Shown: positions 3 through 8,822 of the stretch, piece by piece
Numbering within the stretch: the stretch's first letter is position 1
Layout of the letters: each line of letters begins with the position of its first letter
DNA from: Mariniplasma anaerobium
Lineage (GTDB): Bacteria; Bacillota_I; Bacilli_A; Acholeplasmatales; Acholeplasmataceae
NCBI RefSeq assembly: GCF_016865445.1
Contig: NZ_AP024412.1
Coordinates: forward strand, 558,001 to 622,000
Reading direction: 5' to 3'
DNA length: 64,000 bases
The notes under the pieces: generated by a model
Told to the model about the DNA's origin: nothing
Databases searched by the model: none
What the model saw: only the letters and a program-made list of their open reading frames with translations
Position numbers and translations under genes: made by a program

Positions 3-2054
3 GAATATGTAAAACTATTTGAAAATGGATCATTGTTGATTGAACAATCATTAAACTATATTGGAGATACGACTAGAATTCATGATATATCTTATAGCCT
101 CAAAGATGATGATAATCTGTATAAGTATAGTTATACATACGATGATGTGGGTAATATTATTCGTGAGTCCTATTATGAAGATGGATTTTTAAAGTTTGAT
201 AAGAACTATGCGTATGATGAGCTTAATCAATTGATTGTAGAAGATTCACGAGATTATGATATACCTTTAAGTTCAACTTTAACAGAAACAAATTACACTA
301 AATATTATTATTATGATAATAGAGGAAATATAACTGACATTAAGACATTTTTATATGGTCAAGATGACTATGAGGAAGCAGTTGCACCCACTGAGTATGA
401 CATCAATTATGGTAGTGATCCTATATTTGTAGTAATTTCAGGCGATACAGAAATACCAGTCAATGGTAGTCTATCATTAGGATTTACATATTATAAATTA
501 GAATATGTTATGCCTCCAAATCCAGTTACATTACCTATGGTTACCATAAAGGATTATACTCAAGTAGACACAACAACACCAGGATATTATTTAATTGATT
601 GTATAGGTAAAGATAAATTTGGAGGATCCACTTACAATCTAGAGTTTGGCATTTTAATTACTGTAGGCACACCTAGTAGTGGGCCTACAATACCACAAGA
701 ACATATTCATTATAATTATAGTGAAAGTTGGTTGGATCAACTTGAAAGCATTGATAACATCACATATAATCAAGACGGATCGATTAATACAACAACGAGA
801 TTAGGAAATTATGAGTATGATGATCAAGGAAATCCTGATGAGATGACTGATTTTTATTACAATGGAAATCTCTATGATCATGCTGCTTTAGTATATGATG
901 GTAGACAACTATCTATGATCACATTAACAGATGCGACATTAGCAACAGTTGAAATCGAATATTCATATAATGATCAAGGATATCGTACGAGTAAAACGAT
1001 TAATGGAAGTAAAGTAGAGTATTTCTTAGAAGGGGACAAAGCTCTATTTGAAACTGATGGAACTTATGGTATTATTTATACATATGATTATGATGGTTCA
1101 TTGATTAGTTTCAATTATGATGATGATATTGATGATTCTACTGAAGGTATAGAGTATTACTATATTAAGAATATCCAAGGAGATATCACAAAGATAGTTG
1201 ATCATGATGGGGATATTGTAGTTAAGTATGAGTATGATGTTTGGGGAAATATCGTAAAGATAACAGATGGTTCAGGCATTAATTTAGCTGAGATAAACCC
1301 ATATAGATATCGTAGTTATCGATATGATGAAGAAATTAATATGTATTATTTGAATAGTAGATATTATAATCCAGTAGTGGGAAGATTTATAAATGCTGAT
1401 GGTATGTTAGGACAAGTTGGAAATGCTTTATCAACTAATATGTATGCATATTGTGCAAACAATCCAGTAATGTTCACTGATCCCAGCGGAGAATTTCCAA
1501 TTTTAATTGCAGCATTCATTATAGGTGCAGTTATTTCTGGAACTGCAAGTACAATATCTCAAGGAGCAACAGATGGATGGGAAAATATCAATTGGAGCCA
1601 AGTAGGATTTGACTCATTAATTGGGGGAGTTACCACACTAGTAGGAGCAAGTGGTATAGGAGTAGTAGGAGCTATGATTGTAGGCGGAACATTAGGTTTC
1701 ACTGGAAGTGTGGGATCAGATTTGATAGCTGGAAATGGCGATTGGTCTGAAGTTAATTGGACAAAAGCTGGTATTATGACAGTTGTCGGAATAGGTTTAG
1801 GTGGTTGGTCCGGATCAGGAGCTCAAAACTTTAAAACTATGAATGCTAAAATTAATCTGGGACAATCATGGGGTTCAAAATCATATATTAATTATGGAGT
1901 TTCTGTAATAGACAGAGCAGCTACATCATATGCGCGACATACAGCGTCACAATTACTAGCAAATGCTGTAAGAGGATATCAGGCACAAGCGATATCAAGA
2001 GCATTAGCATCTGCTTTATATGCAATGGGAATTTCCGAATTCATACAGGGGTAG
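3..2054 (+). CDS. RHS repeat protein with C-terminal variable domain (5' end outside window)
   Basis: The frame is open to the left window edge, so the N-terminus is missing. Visible are YD-type RHS repeats (for example YTYDDVGNI), an inserted Ig-like beta domain at about residues 125-220 counted from position 33, more repeats, and the RHS-associated core at about residues 400-485 (YRYRSYRYDEEINMYYLNSR, then YYNPVVGRFINAD, then NNPVMFTDPSGEF). After the core comes a glycine-rich, hydrophobic variable C-terminus of about 185 residues that matches no nuclease I know. In RHS toxins this tail is the effector and the next gene is its immunity protein. Here the tail looks membrane-directed, which is inference. 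A TTG at 33 is unlikely to be the real start because the frame continues upstream. Confidence 0.85.
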   Translation, partial: EYVKLFENGSLLIEQSLNYIGDTTRIHDISYSLKDDDNLYKYSYTYDDVGNIIRESYYEDGFLKFDKNYAYDELNQLIVEDSRDYDIPLSSTLTETNYTKYYYYDNRGNITDIKTFLYGQDDYEEAVAPTEYDINYGSDPIFVVISGDTEIPVNGSLSLGFTYYKLEYVMPPNPVTLPMVTIKDYTQVDTTTPGYYLIDCIGKDKFGGSTYNLEFGILITVGTPSSGPTIPQEHIHYNYSESWLDQLESIDNITYNQDGSINTTTRLGNYEYDDQGNPDEMTDFYYNGNLYDHAALVYDGRQLSMITLTDATLATVEIEYSYNDQGYRTSKTINGSKVEYFLEGDKALFETDGTYGIIYTYDYDGSLISFNYDDDIDDSTEGIEYYYIKNIQGDITKIVDHDGDIVVKYEYDVWGNIVKITDGSGINLAEINPYRYRSYRYDEEINMYYLNSRYYNPVVGRFINADGMLGQVGNALSTNMYAYCANNPVMFTDPSGEFPILIAAFIIGAVISGTASTISQGATDGWENINWSQVGFDSLIGGVTTLVGASGIGVVGAMIVGGTLGFTGSVGSDLIAGNGDWSEVNWTKAGIMTVVGIGLGGWSGSGAQNFKTMNAKINLGQSWGSKSYINYGVSVIDRAATSYARHTASQLLANAVRGYQAQAISRALASALYAMGISEFIQG

Positions 2055-2057
2055 ATT

Positions 2058-2501
2058 ATGGAATTATTTATTGTAATACTAGGAATGATATTTTGTATTT
2101 TAAATTGGTTCTTTTTTGGAACTGGACATTTTCATTTATCATTTATTGAAAAAATAAAATATAGAAAATTTAAATTGGGTAATTTTTATTTCACTCTTGT
2201 GATTTCTATTTCAATGTTAAGTCTGTATGTTATAAGTTTTTTTAATGAGCTTATACAGTTTAAAAAAATTATTTTAATTATGTTTTGTATTGAATTTGGT
2301 GGAACCATTATATATATTCTCGCTCTTGATTTAATCGGTATTAATAATAAAAACAAAGAGATAATTAAACATATTCTAGAGCAAATATCAAAAAATTCAC
2401 ACATGAAAAAAGATGAAATTATATATAATGTTAGAACTCAATTTAGAGAATTATCTATCAAAGATATAGAGAAACAGTATAATAAAATAGATAGATCTTA
2501 A
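2058..2501 (+). CDS. Small membrane protein, putative immunity partner of the first RHS tail
   Basis: This 147-residue protein starts 3 bases after the RHS gene stops. It has three hydrophobic segments (about residues 1-25, 45-63 and 70-93) followed by a charged cytosolic tail of about 50 residues. I recognise no family. Its position directly behind an RHS tail and its small size are typical of a cognate immunity gene, and a membrane location fits a membrane-acting toxin. The function is inferred from context only. Confidence 0.6.
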   Translation: MELFIVILGMIFCILNWFFFGTGHFHLSFIEKIKYRKFKLGNFYFTLVISISMLSLYVISFFNELIQFKKIILIMFCIEFGGTIIYILALDLIGINNKNKEIIKHILEQISKNSHMKKDEIIYNVRTQFRELSIKDIEKQYNKIDRS

Positions 2502-2579
2502 ATAGAATTCAAGATTTAAAATCTATAGACTAATTTTTAGAATATATAAAATAGTGCATATCATGCAAACAATCCAATC

Positions 2580-3167
2580 ATGCATGTAGATCCAAGTGGA
2601 AAATCATTTTTAGCAATACTCGGAACAGTTGTATTAGGCGCTGCTGTTGGTGGTTTTGTAGGTGCGATAACTGCAGCAATTGACGGTGATGATATTGGTG
2701 CAGGATTCTTAAGTGGTGCGGTAGCGGGTGCTATTATTAGTGTAGGTCTTGCTACTGCAATAGCATTAGGTCCTGTTGTAGGAGGAGTAGTAGCTACTGG
2801 TTCAGGTTTTATGGGAGGTTATGCAGGAGATGTTGTATCTCAGGGAATGACAAAAGGATGGGATAAAATAAATGGAAATCATGCTCTTGCTATAGGTGGT
2901 GTTACTGCACTTATAACTCTAGGAAGTTTTGGTATAATGAGTTATATAGCTCGCTCAACTCCAAGCTTATTTGGCAACATGGTTAATAGAACTATACCAA
3001 TAATGACAAGAGTAAATAATTCACTTTCATTAACTGCAACAACTGCTTTTTTAGCTCTTACATATGGAGCTACAGGATCCCTACTAAACTCATTGGCCAA
3101 TTTATTAGTAGATGAAAATGAAGAAAGCCAAGAAAATATCATTGATATAATCGCGGGATGCGATTAA
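2580..3167 (+). CDS. Orphan RHS C-terminal cassette
   Basis: The frame upstream of the ATG reads NSAYHANNPIMHVDPSGK from position 2550, right after an in-frame stop. That matches the end of the RHS core (NNPVMFTDPSG in the first RHS gene). The protein is therefore a displaced toxin tail that kept only about 16 core residues. The 195 residues are mostly hydrophobic and Gly/Ala-rich, with several possible membrane segments, and the tail ends with an acidic stretch. No ribosome binding site is obvious before 2580, so the cassette may be silent until recombined behind a full RHS core. Confidence 0.6.
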   Translation: MHVDPSGKSFLAILGTVVLGAAVGGFVGAITAAIDGDDIGAGFLSGAVAGAIISVGLATAIALGPVVGGVVATGSGFMGGYAGDVVSQGMTKGWDKINGNHALAIGGVTALITLGSFGIMSYIARSTPSLFGNMVNRTIPIMTRVNNSLSLTATTAFLALTYGATGSLLNSLANLLVDENEESQENIIDIIAGCD

Positions 3168-3177
3168 AGGAGTAATT

Positions 3178-3681
3178 ATGGAAAACACAAAAACAAAGTT
3201 TCTTGCCTCACCATTCATATTATTTGGAATATTGTTTCTTGTTATTATAGGCTATTTTCTGTTTGTACTGACATTCATTATTTTACCGACACCAACTGAA
3301 GAAAATCGTTCTCAACTTACTACTATATTATTAGTTATAATGCTTGGTGGTTTTCCAACATTCACATTAGTATTCACTTTAAATAAGTGTTTTTCAATGA
3401 TTTCCTTTGATGAAGAAGGTGTTCATAGATCACTATTTAACCATTTCTTTAAGAAAGATTTTTTATGGGAAGACATAAAAGAATTTAGAATTTTTAATAG
3501 AGTAGATCAGTGGCTTTTTATTAGTAAATTACCCACAGAAGGTTTATCATATTATCAGTTGATTAAAAACAAGGATATCATACAAATAAGTTTCACTCCA
3601 AACATTCTAAAAGCTATCAGAAAGTATTCAAGTATGAAAATAGAAAACCTAAATGAAAATCAAGATAATGAAACAGATTAA
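3178..3681 (+). CDS. Membrane protein with PH-like domain, putative immunity protein
   Basis: This 167-residue protein starts 10 bases after the orphan RHS tail, with AGGAG just upstream of ATG 3178. Two membrane segments (about residues 10-35 and 46-67) are followed by a cytosolic part of about 95 residues beginning MISFDEEGVHRSLFNHFF. Its beta-rich pattern resembles the bacterial PH-like domains of YcxB-type proteins; that resemblance is by eye. The architecture of two helices plus a PH-like domain recurs in the gene at 4610. The immunity role is inferred from pairing with the RHS tail. Confidence 0.55.
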   Translation: MENTKTKFLASPFILFGILFLVIIGYFLFVLTFIILPTPTEENRSQLTTILLVIMLGGFPTFTLVFTLNKCFSMISFDEEGVHRSLFNHFFKKDFLWEDIKEFRIFNRVDQWLFISKLPTEGLSYYQLIKNKDIIQISFTPNILKAIRKYSSMKIENLNENQDNETD

Positions 3682-3739
3682 TTTGTAAACTTCAGAGAAC
3701 ATATGTATAGAATCATATTTTTTAACAACATTCAACATT

Positions 3740-4594
3740 GTGTACTTAAACATAAAAAGACTGTATTTATGTTACTCCAATATTATAAATGCCAGTGGTA
3801 TAACTGTTGTTCACTATGTCTATGATGCATATGGAAACATTACTAAGACAGAAGTCACATCAGGTTATGGCTATATTGCAAATATAAATTCATACACTTA
3901 CCGTGGATATCGATATGATTCTGAAATTAATATGTACTATTTGAATAGTCGATATTATAATCCAAAAGTTGGTAGATTCATTAATGCTGATAAGATTATT
4001 GGACAATTATCTCACATTGGATCAACGAATATGTATGCATGTGTAAATAATAACCCTGTTAATTTTGCCGATGAAGAAGGTGAGTTTTGGCATCTAGTTG
4101 GTGGATTCGTTGTTGGAGCAGCAATTGGAACAGTCACCCAAATCGTTTCAAATGTTGTAAGTGGAAATGAATGGTCAGAGGGTGTTTTGACTGCCGCTGC
4201 TATTGGTGGGTTGTCTGGATTATTAACTGCAGCAGGTGCTGGATCTCTAACTATTGGACTTGTATCAGGTACTACTGCAGCTTTTGGAAGGCAAATTGAA
4301 GAGAATAAGTTAAATTTTTCTGAATGGAATGTTGGAGAAATGGTTGTAGATGCAGTTATAGTTGGAGTGTTAGCTGGAGTCGGCTCGTCTTATGGTAACA
4401 AAAAAATTGAATATACTTCAAGACAAATAAAGTACTGGATTAAACCTGGTTCATTTAAAACAATGATTACAGGTAATTATATGAAAAAAATAACGAAAGC
4501 TGTTGCTTATTCAGCAATTCCAGCATTAGATTATGCATTCTTAACTTCTTTGAAAGGAGATCAATATGAAAATAGTAAAATTATTATTGAATGA
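3740..4594 (+). CDS. Truncated RHS core with a third variable C-terminus
   Basis: The frame begins with about 17 residues of unlike sequence, then joins RHS core at INASGITVVHYVYDAYGNIT and continues through YRGYRYDSEINMYYLNSRYY and GRFINADKIIG to NNNPVNFADEEGEF (about residues 20-112). The remaining 170 residues are a Gly/Ala-rich hydrophobic tail unlike the other two. All upstream RHS repeats are gone, no convincing ribosome binding site precedes the GTG at 3740, and the core is closely similar at DNA level to 1315-1410. It is best read as a displaced or archived cassette and may not be expressed by itself. Confidence 0.6.
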   Translation: MYLNIKRLYLCYSNIINASGITVVHYVYDAYGNITKTEVTSGYGYIANINSYTYRGYRYDSEINMYYLNSRYYNPKVGRFINADKIIGQLSHIGSTNMYACVNNNPVNFADEEGEFWHLVGGFVVGAAIGTVTQIVSNVVSGNEWSEGVLTAAAIGGLSGLLTAAGAGSLTIGLVSGTTAAFGRQIEENKLNFSEWNVGEMVVDAVIVGVLAGVGSSYGNKKIEYTSRQIKYWIKPGSFKTMITGNYMKKITKAVAYSAIPALDYAFLTSLKGDQYENSKIIIE

Positions 4595-4609
4595 TTGTAG
4601 CATTAGAAA

Positions 4610-5128
4610 ATGATAAAACACTTTAATTCAGAAAGAGTATATATTTCTTTATTTATTATTTTATTGCTTTCTTTTCCTATTATCTTTAATATTATATACT
4701 ATATACTACTTGAATTTATAAAAGATCCCCAAAATTTCCAATACAATTTTTTTAATATAACATTCATTAGTATTTGGATAGTATTTATATCGAATAATAT
4801 GTTACATATTATTATGGAGTCAAATTTCCAAATTAATGAACATGACGGATACTTCGAGTATAAAACATTAATGAGAAGAAGAGAAAAAATCTACAATAAT
4901 AGAATAAAAAAGGTGATAATTTGCAAGGAAAATCTGGTTCTTAAAGGAGGGTATGAGGCAATCATAGTAGTTAGAAAAGGACTTAAAAGGAGTTTGTTTT
5001 TTCATGAGTTTTCAATGAAGAAGCAAGATTATACTAAAGTTAAAGACATTTTCTTGTCAAAAGATGTCAATATAGTTTATAAAGAGAATAAATTTTTTAA
5101 ACCTTTGGCAACTTTGTTTTATTTTTAA
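4610..5128 (+). CDS. Membrane protein, putative immunity partner of the third RHS tail
   Basis: This 172-residue protein starts 15 bases after the RHS remnant ends. Two membrane helices (about residues 10-37 and 47-68) precede a basic, beta-rich cytosolic part of about 100 residues starting near NFQINEHDGYFEYKTLMRRR. The layout matches the protein at 3178 although sequence identity is low. I know no named family for it. The immunity role is inferred from position behind an RHS tail. Confidence 0.55.
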   Translation: MIKHFNSERVYISLFIILLLSFPIIFNIIYYILLEFIKDPQNFQYNFFNITFISIWIVFISNNMLHIIMESNFQINEHDGYFEYKTLMRRREKIYNNRIKKVIICKENLVLKGGYEAIIVVRKGLKRSLFFHEFSMKKQDYTKVKDIFLSKDVNIVYKENKFFKPLATLFYF

Positions 5129-5267
5129 TAGGTTGATATGAAAACGTGTAAATTGGTAATACATGTAGATATTCTATTATGTATATTACCCATTGCTTTT
5201 CTTGCTACTAATGTATGGAAACATTGCTATTTATAACAATTTAGTGGAATATACTTTTCAAAGAAAA

Positions 5268-5317
5268 AAGCCAAGAAATCGCGAGAATGTCTTTTTGATT
5301 TCTTGGTTTAATTTTTG
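5268..5317 (+). terminator. Hairpin with T-rich tail after the RHS locus
   Basis: CCAAGAAATC (5271-5280) pairs with GATTTCTTGG (5297-5306) around a 16-base loop, followed by TTTAATTTTT. It lies 140 bases beyond the last RHS-region gene and would end that transcript. Confidence 0.55.
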
Positions 5318-5361
5318 TCAAAAAATGATATAAATTGCCTTCCTTGAACTTTACTTTTTCT

Positions 5362-5456
5362 AGTGCTCGTTAGTGTAAATGTAAAACCGTCATTTTGATG
5401 TTACTTGAGTACACACAAGACCCTATTTTCGAACAATATGGTGCACTCAAAGCAGA
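5362..5456. repeat. Direct repeat copy 1
   Basis: This is the first of two copies, each about 95 bp and offset by 152 bp. The best-conserved core is CATTTTGATGTTACTTGAGT followed by ACACACAA. Inside the unit, TTGAGTACAC and GTGCACTCAA form imperfect inverted arms about 25 bases apart. Confidence 0.7.
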
Positions 5457-5513
5457 GTAAAACTAGTCATATAACATTTAATTATGACCAAAATATGTTT
5501 CTATGGTTTTTTC

Positions 5514-5608
5514 ACTGCTTGTTAGTGTAAACATAAAATGTTCATTTTGATGTTACTTGAGTACACACAACACCCCATTTTCGAGCAATCTGGTTCACTC
5601 AACGCAGC
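5514..5608. repeat. Direct repeat copy 2
   Basis: Second copy of the unit at 5362-5456, with most differences being single substitutions. The inverted arms TTGAGTACAC and TTCACTCAA are kept, which suggests that the folded form may matter. Confidence 0.7.
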
Positions 5609-5640
5609 ATGAGTGAGAGAACATATAGGAGAAAATATAA

Positions 5641-5670: not shown

Positions 5671-5946
5671 AAAGTAACGACAAATTTCAATTATAAGAAG
5701 ATTGACTTAGAAAAAAAGTTCCAATTTATGGAAAAAATATAGTAAATATATGTTAACATTGTCAACCTTCGCTAGAGTATGTTACTTGATTTATATACAT
5801 GATGGTTTTTGACCCCCTATTAGCTAGAGTTCGTTGCTCGATTTATGTTTCCACCCACAAAATATTCAAGCAATCACGGGCTAACTGTGTTGCTAGTGTA
5901 TGGAAGCATATGTTATTTAGAGTGATATAATCAAAATATGAATTTA

Positions 5947-6005
5947 ATAAAAACAAACCAAGAAGTGGGAGCAGAACTCCTTAATTTCTTGGTTTGTTTT
6001 TATTA
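5947..6005 (+). terminator. Long hairpin with T-rich arm
   Basis: AAAACAAACCAAGAA pairs perfectly with TTCTTGGTTTGTTTT around an 18-20 base loop. The CCAAGAA/TTCTTGG stem is the same as in the hairpin at 5268-5317, so the two are probably copies of one element. It could insulate comEA from upstream transcription. Confidence 0.6.
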
Positions 6006-6271
6006 AAAATTATACATATTGCTGAATACGTTAAATTAGCACAGATTAGATATGACCTCTTTTTATAAAAATGTAACTGATATAGGATAGTTATTAATTA
6101 TATATATTAAGCACCTCTTTAAAAGATTTTGTGAAAATTATTTGAGATGATAAAATAATTTAAAACTCTATAAAACATTCAAAATATAAAATCAACTTGC
6201 TAAGTTTATACTGATTATTTTTTTAAAGTAAAATATTTAATTCATCTATATCATATAGTGGAGGGATATAG

Positions 6272-6778: not shown

Positions 6779-8822
6779 TTTTTATAAGTATGGAGTTGCA
6801 TTATTTATTTTCATTTTAGGTTTTTTTTATGTCTGGGCATTTTTAATATGTTTTATATATATGATATGGATGAGAAAACAAATCCATATCATATTTTTGG
6901 TTATTCTAATAATTGTTATATCGCTTTGTTATGCATTATTAACTAATTTTGACCAAGATCATATCCAAAGAGATGTAAAAGTTGTATCCATCGATTCTTA
7001 TGATGAGTATGCTAGATATACAGTTAAATATCAACGATATAAATTTCATTTTTATAGTGGATTAAATGAATATCAATTAGGTGATATTCTTTATATTAAT
7101 GCCGATATCACAGCTTATAAAGCACAGACAGTTGAATATGGATTTAATTTAAAATCATATTTTTTAGCATTTAATGTTTATGGAAAATTAGATATTCAAG
7201 ATATCAAACTTATAGATCATACATATCATATCTATCAAATAAGAGAAACGCTTAAAACTAGTGTAAATAACTTGGCATCAAGTACTTATTTGAAAGCTTT
7301 ATTATTTGGTGAAAAAATCAGAGATGAGCAAACAATAGAGACTTATACAAATTTTGATATCCTATATTTATTTACGATATCAGGACTTCATGTGTATGTT
7401 TTAATGATTATTTTAAAAAAAGTATTATTCATATTAAATGTAAATCAAAGATTTCAAGATGGCATGATGATTGTTATGCTTGGATGGATCAGTTATTTAA
7501 ATTTATTTTCTTTTGCGGTCTTAAGATTATTAATTATTTATATCTTAAGAATCATAAATAAGAAGTTTGAGATGAACATGCAAAACTTAGATATGATTTT
7601 TCTCACTTTTTTTATACTCACTATATTTAATACAGGGTTCATTTTTCATCAAGGATTTGTCATTACTTTTTTAATTATAGTGTGTTTAGAACTCATACAT
7701 CCATTATTCAGTCCATATCCAAACTACATAAAAAAAGTCATGATGTCTGTGAGCATATCAGTTATTATCTTGCCTTTTTTTCAAGACATCTCAATTTTTC
7801 AAATCCTTTTATTGCCTATGATGATTTTTATCATTACTTGTATATTATATCCTTTTGCGATGCTAACATTTATATTTCCTGTCATTGACGACATCTATGT
7901 GATGATCTTAAATCTATTTGAAAAAGTTATTCTATTTATATCTACCTATCAAATTTCATTTTTTATTCCAAAGTTTAATATATATCAAATGTTTTTATAT
8001 TATGGTTTATTTATATATGTTTGTTTTTCAAATCATATAAAGCAAAGTTTGAAAAGAATGATGATATTAATATTTCTTATGAGTTTGAGTCAATATACGT
8101 TAAACTTATTTAATATAGAAAATATAACATTTTTAGATGTAGGTCAAGGAGATACAACGATTATTCAAACAAAAGAGTGTAAAGTTGTTGTTGATGCATT
8201 TAATGGAACAACCTCATATCTAAAAAATCATGGCATTTATGAACTTGATTATCTTATCCTTACACATAGCCATGAAGATCATATCAAAGAAGCGAAATCA
8301 ATCATGGACAGTATTAATGTTAAACAAATTATTGTAAGTTTTTACGATGATAGATATCCTGCTTACAAACAAAATGTATTGAGATTAAAAGCAGAGGATA
8401 AAATCACTTGTGGATCGATAAACTTTAATTTTATGGGTCCAATAAAAGATTATGATAATGAAAATAATGTATCACTTGTTTTTCAAATGTATTACGATAG
8501 TAAAACATTTTTGTTTACTGGTGATATTGAAGCAGAAGCTGAAACAGATCTAATTAATGCATATCATCACATGTTAAAAAGTGATATTTTAAAAGTGCCA
8601 CATCACGGCTCAATAACATCATCAACTAAAGAGTTCTTAGAGATGGTTAATCCAAGTTATGCAGTGATTTCATTAGATAAGTATAATTCATTTGGATTTC
8701 CAGATGAAAATGTCATCACAAGGTATCAAGAAATAAGATGTATTATCTATAGGACAGACATAAATGGAACGATATCTTATCACAGGAAAAATAGGAAAGA
8801 AAAATGGACTACTTTCCTATGA
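6744..8822 (+). CDS. comEC: ComEC/Rec2 DNA uptake channel with MBL domain
   Basis: The 692 residues contain N-terminal membrane helices, an OB-like soluble stretch, the ComEC competence membrane domain (about residues 180-445, with YLFTISGLHVYVLMIIL typical of the family) and a C-terminal metallo-beta-lactamase-like domain (FLDVGQGDTTII, then LTHSHEDHI with the HxHxDH metal motif, then VPHHGS). ComEC forms the channel for single-stranded DNA during transformation. It is slightly shorter than the Bacillus protein. The start is a TTG at 6744 inside comEA; another in-frame TTG at 6771 is possible. No ATG is usable near the N-terminus. Confidence 0.9.
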   Translation: MKRLDHILRLDDFYKYGVALFIFILGFFYVWAFLICFIYMIWMRKQIHIIFLVILIIVISLCYALLTNFDQDHIQRDVKVVSIDSYDEYARYTVKYQRYKFHFYSGLNEYQLGDILYINADITAYKAQTVEYGFNLKSYFLAFNVYGKLDIQDIKLIDHTYHIYQIRETLKTSVNNLASSTYLKALLFGEKIRDEQTIETYTNFDILYLFTISGLHVYVLMIILKKVLFILNVNQRFQDGMMIVMLGWISYLNLFSFAVLRLLIIYILRIINKKFEMNMQNLDMIFLTFFILTIFNTGFIFHQGFVITFLIIVCLELIHPLFSPYPNYIKKVMMSVSISVIILPFFQDISIFQILLLPMMIFIITCILYPFAMLTFIFPVIDDIYVMILNLFEKVILFISTYQISFFIPKFNIYQMFLYYGLFIYVCFSNHIKQSLKRMMILIFLMSLSQYTLNLFNIENITFLDVGQGDTTIIQTKECKVVVDAFNGTTSYLKNHGIYELDYLILTHSHEDHIKEAKSIMDSINVKQIIVSFYDDRYPAYKQNVLRLKAEDKITCGSINFNFMGPIKDYDNENNVSLVFQMYYDSKTFLFTGDIEAEAETDLINAYHHMLKSDILKVPHHGSITSSTKEFLEMVNPSYAVISLDKYNSFGFPDENVITRYQEIRCIIYRTDINGTISYHRKNRKEKWTTFL

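What the first reader, a model, noticed from the sequence alone, without database searches (positions are those of the whole stretch)
3..5128. RHS locus with two displaced tail-immunity cassettes, all of membrane type
Three variable tails stand in a row, each followed by a small membrane protein. The second tail begins right after an in-frame stop plus about 16 residues of RHS core (NSAYHANNPIMHVDPSGK), and the third keeps only the last ~90 core residues. This is the signature of successive tail replacement by recombination in the conserved core. All three tails are Gly/Ala-rich and hydrophobic without a recognisable nuclease, and all partners are membrane proteins, two of them with the same two-helix plus PH-like layout. 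A membrane-targeting toxin set in a probably wall-less lineage would be unusual.
Basis: partly seen in the sequence, partly recalled or inferred. Interest (0 to 1): 0.62.

Follow-up and report, generated by a model that had tools for sequence, protein, structure and literature searches.

The report
RHS toxin locus with silent spare tails
A cell-wall-less bacterium carries a large secreted RHS toxin gene followed by two older, switched-off toxin tips, each still paired with its own probable protective membrane protein; the arrangement is of a known kind, but one tip-protector pair belongs to an unnamed family that recurs across the Bacillota.

Summary
Window 3-5128 is the 3' end of a secreted RHS/WapA-type gene (2278 aa, starting 4.8 kb upstream) followed by two displaced tail-partner cassettes. 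T2-I2 also exists as an orphan in a sister species (81% identity). Homology breakpoints lie inside the conserved core, and another RHS locus of this genome has swapped its tail relative to its ortholog. Displaced tails lack ribosome-binding sites; most partner genes have them. Four congeners have an empty site where this 11.5-kb array stands.

The Gly/Ala-rich stretch does not mark a membrane toxin: it is a shared pre-toxin module, equally hydrophobic in tails with soluble partners. The pair-specific part is the last ~70-90 residues, where hydrophobicity does track membrane partners (p=0.008 by cluster; p=3.5e-5 in a second set). I2 is predicted as two TM helices plus a PH fold; I2-like proteins follow T2-like tails in Clostridia too. 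I3 shows no homology to I2, and T3 is ambiguous. Three membrane partners of three is expected 9% of the time. The host is probably wall-less. Best reading: main RHS toxin plus two silent cassettes with retained immunity genes; membrane depolarisation likely for T2, plausible for T1, uncertain for T3.

The parts
3..1490 (+). C-terminal part of the RHS repeat region and core of the main RHS gene (the gene starts 4.8 kb upstream of the window; 2278 aa in all)
   Evidence: DNRLRE and Rhs_assc_core hits on the full protein
1479..2054 (+). T1, the active tail: shared Gly-zipper helical module (about residues 1-112 of the tail) plus variable C-terminal ~75 aa
   Evidence: no family; N part 56% identical to a tail in another genome, C part unique; AF2 N part pLDDT 70-88, C part below 50
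2058..2501 (+). I1, predicted immunity protein of T1, 147 aa, three hydrophobic segments
   Evidence: 3 nt after T1; no family
2550..3167 (+). T2, displaced tail with an 18-codon core remnant, no RBS
   Evidence: homologous to the G003 orphan at 81%, dN/dS 0.28
3178..3681 (+). I2, predicted immunity protein of T2, two TM helices plus PH-like domain, strong RBS (AAGGAG)
3682..3782 (.). Spacer shared with the downstream side of I2 in the sister species; its end marks a recombination junction with the third core
   Evidence: G003 7021-8250 aligns to window 2555-3782, then jumps
3777..3991 (+). Core segment of the third cassette; in G003 the orthologous segment stands in front of T2 (82% over 215 nt)
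3740..4594 (+). T3, displaced tail with about 100 core codons; GTG start without RBS, so probably not translated alone
4610..5128 (+). I3, predicted partner of T3, 172 aa, two hydrophobic segments plus a possibly PH-like domain; no RBS found
   Evidence: only relative in the order is 24% identical and not at an RHS locus
5355..5607 (.). Two ~101-bp direct repeats at the 3' end of the array; also present 3' of the T2-I2 cassette in G003 and at an RHS locus in G067; single-locus in the own genome
6217..6228 (.). Right copy of the 12-bp direct repeat ATTTTTTTAAAG that bounds the inserted array (left copy at window -5271)
   Evidence: empty site in four congeners

Best explanation
This is a WapA/Rhs-type polymorphic toxin locus of an Acholeplasmataceae bacterium without a cell wall. 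The main gene is predicted to be exported by Sec and to present an RHS shell that releases the T1 tail at the core end (inferred from known Rhs proteins). The next two cassettes are former tails pushed downstream when new tail-immunity pairs recombined into the conserved core (supported by comparison). They are silent as toxins because they lack start signals and export parts. At least I2 still has its translation signal and should keep protecting against kin that use T2. Each tail has two parts: a shared glycine-zipper helical module, likely for entering or crossing the target membrane (inferred), and a variable end of ~70-90 residues that carries toxicity and partner specificity. For T2, and probably T1, the variable end most likely acts in the membrane by depolarisation or pore formation and is blocked there by a membrane-embedded partner. 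I2 would do this with two TM helices and a PH-like domain (fold predicted; action inferred). T3 may act likewise, but its end is not diagnostic.
For: Architecture. Displacement: T2-I2 plus 3' spacer plus 3' repeats shared with a G003 orphan, and core breakpoints at window 2555 and 3777-3991. In locus C of the same genome the main and displaced cores are 95.5% identical over 806 nt up to the core end; the G003 ortholog is 91% identical over 5846 nt and then carries a different tail. Empty site in G001-G004. Silence: 75 of 103 partner genes have an SD but only 7 of 31 displaced tails have any start with one; I2 has AAGGAG, T2 and T3 none. Frame kept: T2 dN/dS 0.28, I2 0.28, PH part 0.09. Module split: N-terminal 110 residues equal in hydropathy with membrane or soluble partners (p=0.7), C-terminal 70 differ (0.18 vs -0.39, p=0.008 over 44 clusters); second set 0.46 vs -0.50, p=3.5e-5, N part p=0.82. 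Partner homology follows tail-end homology (30 of 54 tail-end-homologous pairs share partners against 23 of 5199 others). I2 fold. Nine further loci in Clostridia and other Bacillota have an I2-family partner after a T2-like tail. No transpeptidase PF00905 in a 99.98% complete genome. Known analogues: Rhs pore-former Tse5 (PMC10684867), orphan Rhs (PMC3967940), membrane immunity for channel-forming effectors (PMC12744356), 2-TM bPH2 protein in a membrane-active bacteriocin operon (PMC7332713).
Against: No toxicity or immunity has been tested. AF2 does not resolve the tail end of T1 (pLDDT below 50). Hydropathy of single ends is weak evidence (likelihood ratios 1.6 for T1, 2.3 for T2, 0.7 for T3). 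Hydrophobicity calls use a simple Kyte-Doolittle window. Some tails with soluble partners also end in hydrophobic stretches. I2-family genes exist away from RHS in G001 and G004, so not every member need be an immunity protein. I1 and I3 have no informative relatives.
Confidence: 0.66

Rival explanations
1. The tails are enzymatic toxins that act in the cytoplasm; the hydrophobic module only carries them across the membrane, and the membrane partners block entry or bind at the membrane.
For: The same kind of module precedes Ntox37, Ntox24-like and other hydrophilic nuclease-like ends with soluble partners in this order and in Clostridia. T3's end is no more hydrophobic than those of soluble-partner tails.
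Against: No Pfam or NCBIfam enzyme in T1-T3. Ends with membrane partners are more hydrophobic as a class in two data sets.
Confidence: 0.2
2. The glycine-zipper module itself is the pore-forming toxin, and the variable end only sets immunity or receptor specificity.
For: GxxxG repeats across the module; glycine zippers are the toxic element in TelE and EsxX (PMC10434224, PMC12744356).
Against: The module is the same in tails with nuclease-like ends and soluble partners; partner identity follows the end more than the module.
Confidence: 0.12
3. The displaced cassettes are decaying pseudogene debris without function.
For: No start or RBS for T2, T3 and none found for I3. Core identity left for recombination is low: 75% over 171 nt for T3 and about 50 nt for T2.
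Against: Open frames kept in two species with dN/dS 0.28 for T2 and 0.09 for the PH part of I2; I2 has a strong RBS.
Confidence: 0.15
4. The partner genes are not immunity genes but unrelated membrane proteins that hitchhike.
For: I2 relatives without RHS in G001 and G004; the I3 relative in G006 stands beside non-RHS genes.
Against: T2-like tail plus I2-like partner co-occur in genomes of several classes; partner and tail-end homology are strongly associated; I2-like genes also sit in clusters of small immunity-like genes.
Confidence: 0.06

Closest known systems
Rhs/WapA polymorphic toxins with orphan tail-immunity modules (Salmonella rhs orphan, PMC3967940; S. suis WapA-CT2, PMC12704120)
   Same: Full-length RHS gene, downstream gene fragments with part of the core, lacking translation start and export signals, each with an immunity gene; tail exchange at the core end
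   Different: Wall-less Acholeplasmataceae host; two displaced cassettes whose core remnants are now short or diverged (T2 about 50 nt, T3 75% over 171 nt, against 522 bp at 95% in Salmonella), so reactivation should be rarer
Tse5 of Pseudomonas aeruginosa, an Rhs pore-forming toxin (PMC10684867, PMC9637101)
   Same: RHS shell delivering a hydrophobic C-terminal toxin to the membrane; the RHS core matches Tse5 by sequence
   Different: Tse5 is a T6SS cargo of a Gram-negative; the match is to the core only; pore formation is not shown here
Glycine-zipper LXG toxins TelE and EsxX and the depolarising toxin TspA with its immunity TsaI (PMC10434224, PMC12744356, PMC9484751)
   Same: Membrane-depolarising toxins in Bacillota with GxxxG motifs; a membrane protein as partner for TspA; immunity gene arrays
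   Different: T7SS delivery (LXG in TelE and EsxX), not RHS; here the zipper lies in a shared module, not in the specific end
CDI ionophore toxins (PMC11630599)
   Same: Two-part CT: an entry domain plus an ionophore end with polymorphic immunity
   Different: There the entry domains vary and use inner-membrane receptors; here the front module is shared and the end varies
2-TM bPH2 proteins in leaderless bacteriocin operons (enterocin DD14 ORF E, PMC7332713; PMC11580447)
   Same: Small protein with two TM helices and a PH domain next to a membrane-active peptide
   Different: PH-domain proteins there are implicated in transport or immunity of small peptides; the I2 family scores below Pfam bPH cut-offs (best bPH_6, E=0.017 in one relative)

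Membership tests
Rhs/WapA polymorphic toxins | Secretion signal, DNRLRE domain, YD/RHS repeats, Rhs core followed by a variable C-terminus | tested here: met
   the signal peptide was judged from the sequence, not with a predictor
Rhs/WapA polymorphic toxins | Small gene directly downstream of each tail, pair-specific | tested here: met
   association by homology only, specificity not assayed
Rhs/WapA polymorphic toxins | Toxicity of the tail and protection by the partner | not testable with these tools
   bench test
Orphan (displaced) rhs-CT/rhsI modules | Tail fragment with part of the core, without translation start signals, with an immunity gene | tested here: met
Orphan (displaced) rhs-CT/rhsI modules | Recombination in the core between main and displaced copies | tested here: met
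   breakpoints and tail swap between species; active switching not tested
Pore-forming Rhs toxins (Tse5-like) | Hydrophobic C-terminal domain that inserts in and depolarises membranes | tested here: inconclusive
   T1 end predicted helical at low confidence; hydropathy favours T2, weakly T1, not T3
Glycine-zipper LXG toxins (TelE/EsxX) | N-terminal LXG domain | tested here: not met
   full protein has RHS and DNRLRE domains, no LXG domain
Bacterial PH domain proteins (bPH) | PH fold | tested here: met
   for I2: predicted fold; top PDB matches are PH, PTB and FERM-F3 domains, best E=0.003
Bacterial PH domain proteins (bPH) | Score above a Pfam bPH cut-off | tested here: not met
2TM-PH family, for I3 | Homology to the I2 family | tested here: not met
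   hhalign probability 0.4%

The most novel reading that the evidence does not exclude
The shared glycine-zipper module in front of these tails is a self-inserting four-helix membrane gate (its model resembles, without significance, Tim17-family subunits). It would let wall-less bacteria push either nucleases or ionophore ends through a neighbour's bare membrane. The ionophore ends would be neutralised by a new class of immunity protein, a membrane-anchored PH domain.
Probability: 0.2. Interest if true: 0.7.

Novelty: new member of a known kind. Interest (0 to 1): 0.42.

Why it matters
It extends RHS tail replacement to wall-less bacteria, where competition cannot involve the cell wall. It separates the tail into a shared membrane module and a pair-specific end. 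It also points to an unnamed 2TM-PH partner family that follows T2-like tails across Bacillota. If the PH-type partner proves to be the immunity factor, a family now without a Pfam or NCBIfam model could be used to find membrane-acting toxins in genomes.

Tried and rejected
Pfam, NCBIfam and PADLOC for tails and partners: nothing usable. PDB sequence search with the I2 family: none. T2 in plasmids and phages: no match. I3 as an I2 homolog: rejected. I1 with partners of T1-like tails: alignment without significance. T1 fold: end unresolved, PDB matches not significant. Assembly error as the cause of the displaced tails: rejected, since the T2-I2 cassette recurs in an independent assembly. 'All membrane type' as an exceptional trait: rejected on base rates. 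The two AF2 jobs went to I2 and T1, so I1, I3, T2 and T3 were not folded.
Full report
WHAT IS THERE. The finding covers the 3' end of a large RHS gene and two downstream cassettes. The window cuts the gene; in the genome it is one ORF of 2278 aa with a hydrophobic signal-like N-terminus, a DNRLRE domain and Rhs_assc_core. T1 (tail starts at 1479, stop ends at 2054) is followed by I1 (2058-2501). T2 (2550-3167) follows an in-frame stop and 18 core codons, then I2 (3178-3681). T3 (3740-4594) keeps about 100 core codons, then I3 (4610-5128). The genome holds two more RHS loci; one of them also has a displaced cassette.

LINEAGE. The window's genome is 99.98% complete and has no penicillin-binding transpeptidase (PF00905), while 10 of 14 control genomes do. 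Wall-lessness is therefore well supported.

TAIL REPLACEMENT. Three comparisons support it. (1) Locus C of the same genome: the main and displaced cores are 95.5% identical over 806 nt up to the core end; the G003 ortholog is 91% identical over 5846 nt and then has a different tail. That is a tail swap. (2) T2-I2 in G003: window 2555-3782 aligns at 84%, and the 3' repeats (5349-5634) also align, but the core in front of T2 in G003 is orthologous to the core in front of T3 here (window 3777-3991, 82%). The breakpoints thus fall in the core, at the NNP/DPSG motif and at GRFIN. The simplest order, an inference, is that T3 and T2 once stood on copies of this core and T1-I1 with another core came last. 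(3) In all four congeners the methyltransferase and comEA genes that flank the array are adjacent; the insert of about 11.5 kb is bounded by the 12-bp repeat ATTTTTTTAAAG (two random 30-nt pieces share a 12-mer with frequency 0.0007). That figure does not allow for the low complexity of the repeat.

SILENT CASSETTES. In the order, 75 of 103 partner genes have a Shine-Dalgarno match against 9% at random positions; only 7 of 31 displaced tails have any start codon with one, about what the number of starts tried would give by chance. Here I2 has AAGGAG; T2, T3 and also I3 have none. T2 still shows constraint (dN/dS 0.28 between two orphan copies; a methyltransferase control gives 0.27), and the PH part of I2 strongly so (0.09). 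Part of that constraint may predate displacement. The cassettes look silent but not like old debris. This matches the published description of orphan rhs modules (PMC3967940).

WHAT THE TAILS ARE. I collected 107 tails from 83 RHS-locus stretches of the order; 99 had a usable partner. The first 110 residues are Gly/Ala-rich and hydrophobic whatever the partner (by cluster 0.59 vs 0.47, p=0.7), while the last 70 differ (0.18 with membrane partners, -0.39 with soluble ones, p=0.008 over 44 clusters; stronger at 80-90 residues). The rule repeats in a second set, mostly Clostridia with some Bacteroidota: ends 0.46 vs -0.50, p=3.5e-5; front p=0.82. That set was found with the T2 family, so it is independent in organisms but not in query, and it was not clustered. 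Some tails of the order end in AHH, Ntox37 or other nuclease families. Partner homology follows the tail end. So the hydrophobic stretch is a shared pre-toxin module and the specific toxin is the end. The T1 model agrees in part: four confident helices in the module, an unresolved end. Weak structural matches of that model to Tim17-family subunits (E 0.2 and above) are a lead only.

THE PARTNERS. I2 is predicted as two helices (12-35, 46-71) and a beta domain with a closing helix, mean pLDDT 74; PDB matches are PH-superfold domains throughout the top ranks. The family has nine linked members in the order and nine more behind T2-like tails elsewhere, with invariant E79, G81 and W97. None passes a Pfam cut-off in the members scanned. 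Relatives also stand alone (G004 and one copy in G001), near an RHS tail remnant (second G001 copy, L136), or within groups of small immunity-like genes (G362, G247, G470). I3 is not demonstrably related. I1 has three hydrophobic segments and no clear relatives.

MECHANISM. Shown by comparison or prediction: displacement, lack of start signals, pairing, the two-part tail, the I2 fold. Inferred: Sec export, release at the core end, membrane action of the T2 and T1 ends, neutralisation in the membrane by I1 and I2, protection by retained I2. Literature makes the inference reasonable: an Rhs pore-former exists (PMC10684867), channel-forming effectors are in almost all cases countered by polytopic membrane proteins (PMC12744356), and a 2-TM bPH2 protein stands in the operon of a leaderless bacteriocin (PMC7332713). 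T3 stays open.

HOW UNUSUAL. Membrane partners are common in the order (22 of 50 clusters), so three of three has probability about 0.09. A membrane-targeting set in a wall-less lineage is no great surprise. The locus is a new member of a known kind; what is new is the T2-I2 family pair and the evidence for the module split.

Noticed in passing
window 5355-5607; L057 5558-5719; L159 2979-3095: Two ~101-bp direct repeats at the 3' end of the array, single-locus in this genome, but also 3' of the T2-I2 orphan in G003 and at an RHS locus in G067; possibly a mark of RHS array ends.
   Followed up: partly
window -5271 and 6217: 12-bp direct repeat ATTTTTTTAAAG at both ends of the ~11.5-kb insert between a methyltransferase gene and comEA; no recombinase gene inside.
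   Followed up: partly
L011 8098-10799 (own genome, locus at 1.58 Mb): Second RHS locus with a displaced EndoU-like nuclease tail and a soluble partner; core copies 95.5% identical, so this one could still switch.
   Followed up: partly
L182 (G362), L183 (G247), L189 (G470): Groups of small immunity-like genes with TM-PH proteins and no RHS tail nearby; possible orphan immunity arrays.
   Followed up: no
L065 (G036), L061 (G027), L133, L137-L139: Many related genomes carry two or three tail cassettes in a row; 22 of 82 locus-strands had at least two.
   Followed up: partly
window 5943-6007 and 5261-5316: Perfect 22-bp inverted repeat and a similar stem after I3, both like intrinsic terminators, downstream of the array.
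   Followed up: no
L070 (G006), L127, L174: Another recurring tail type (ends with YYGxDYYWY or similar) with 2-TM partners and no hydrophobic end; unassigned.
   Followed up: no
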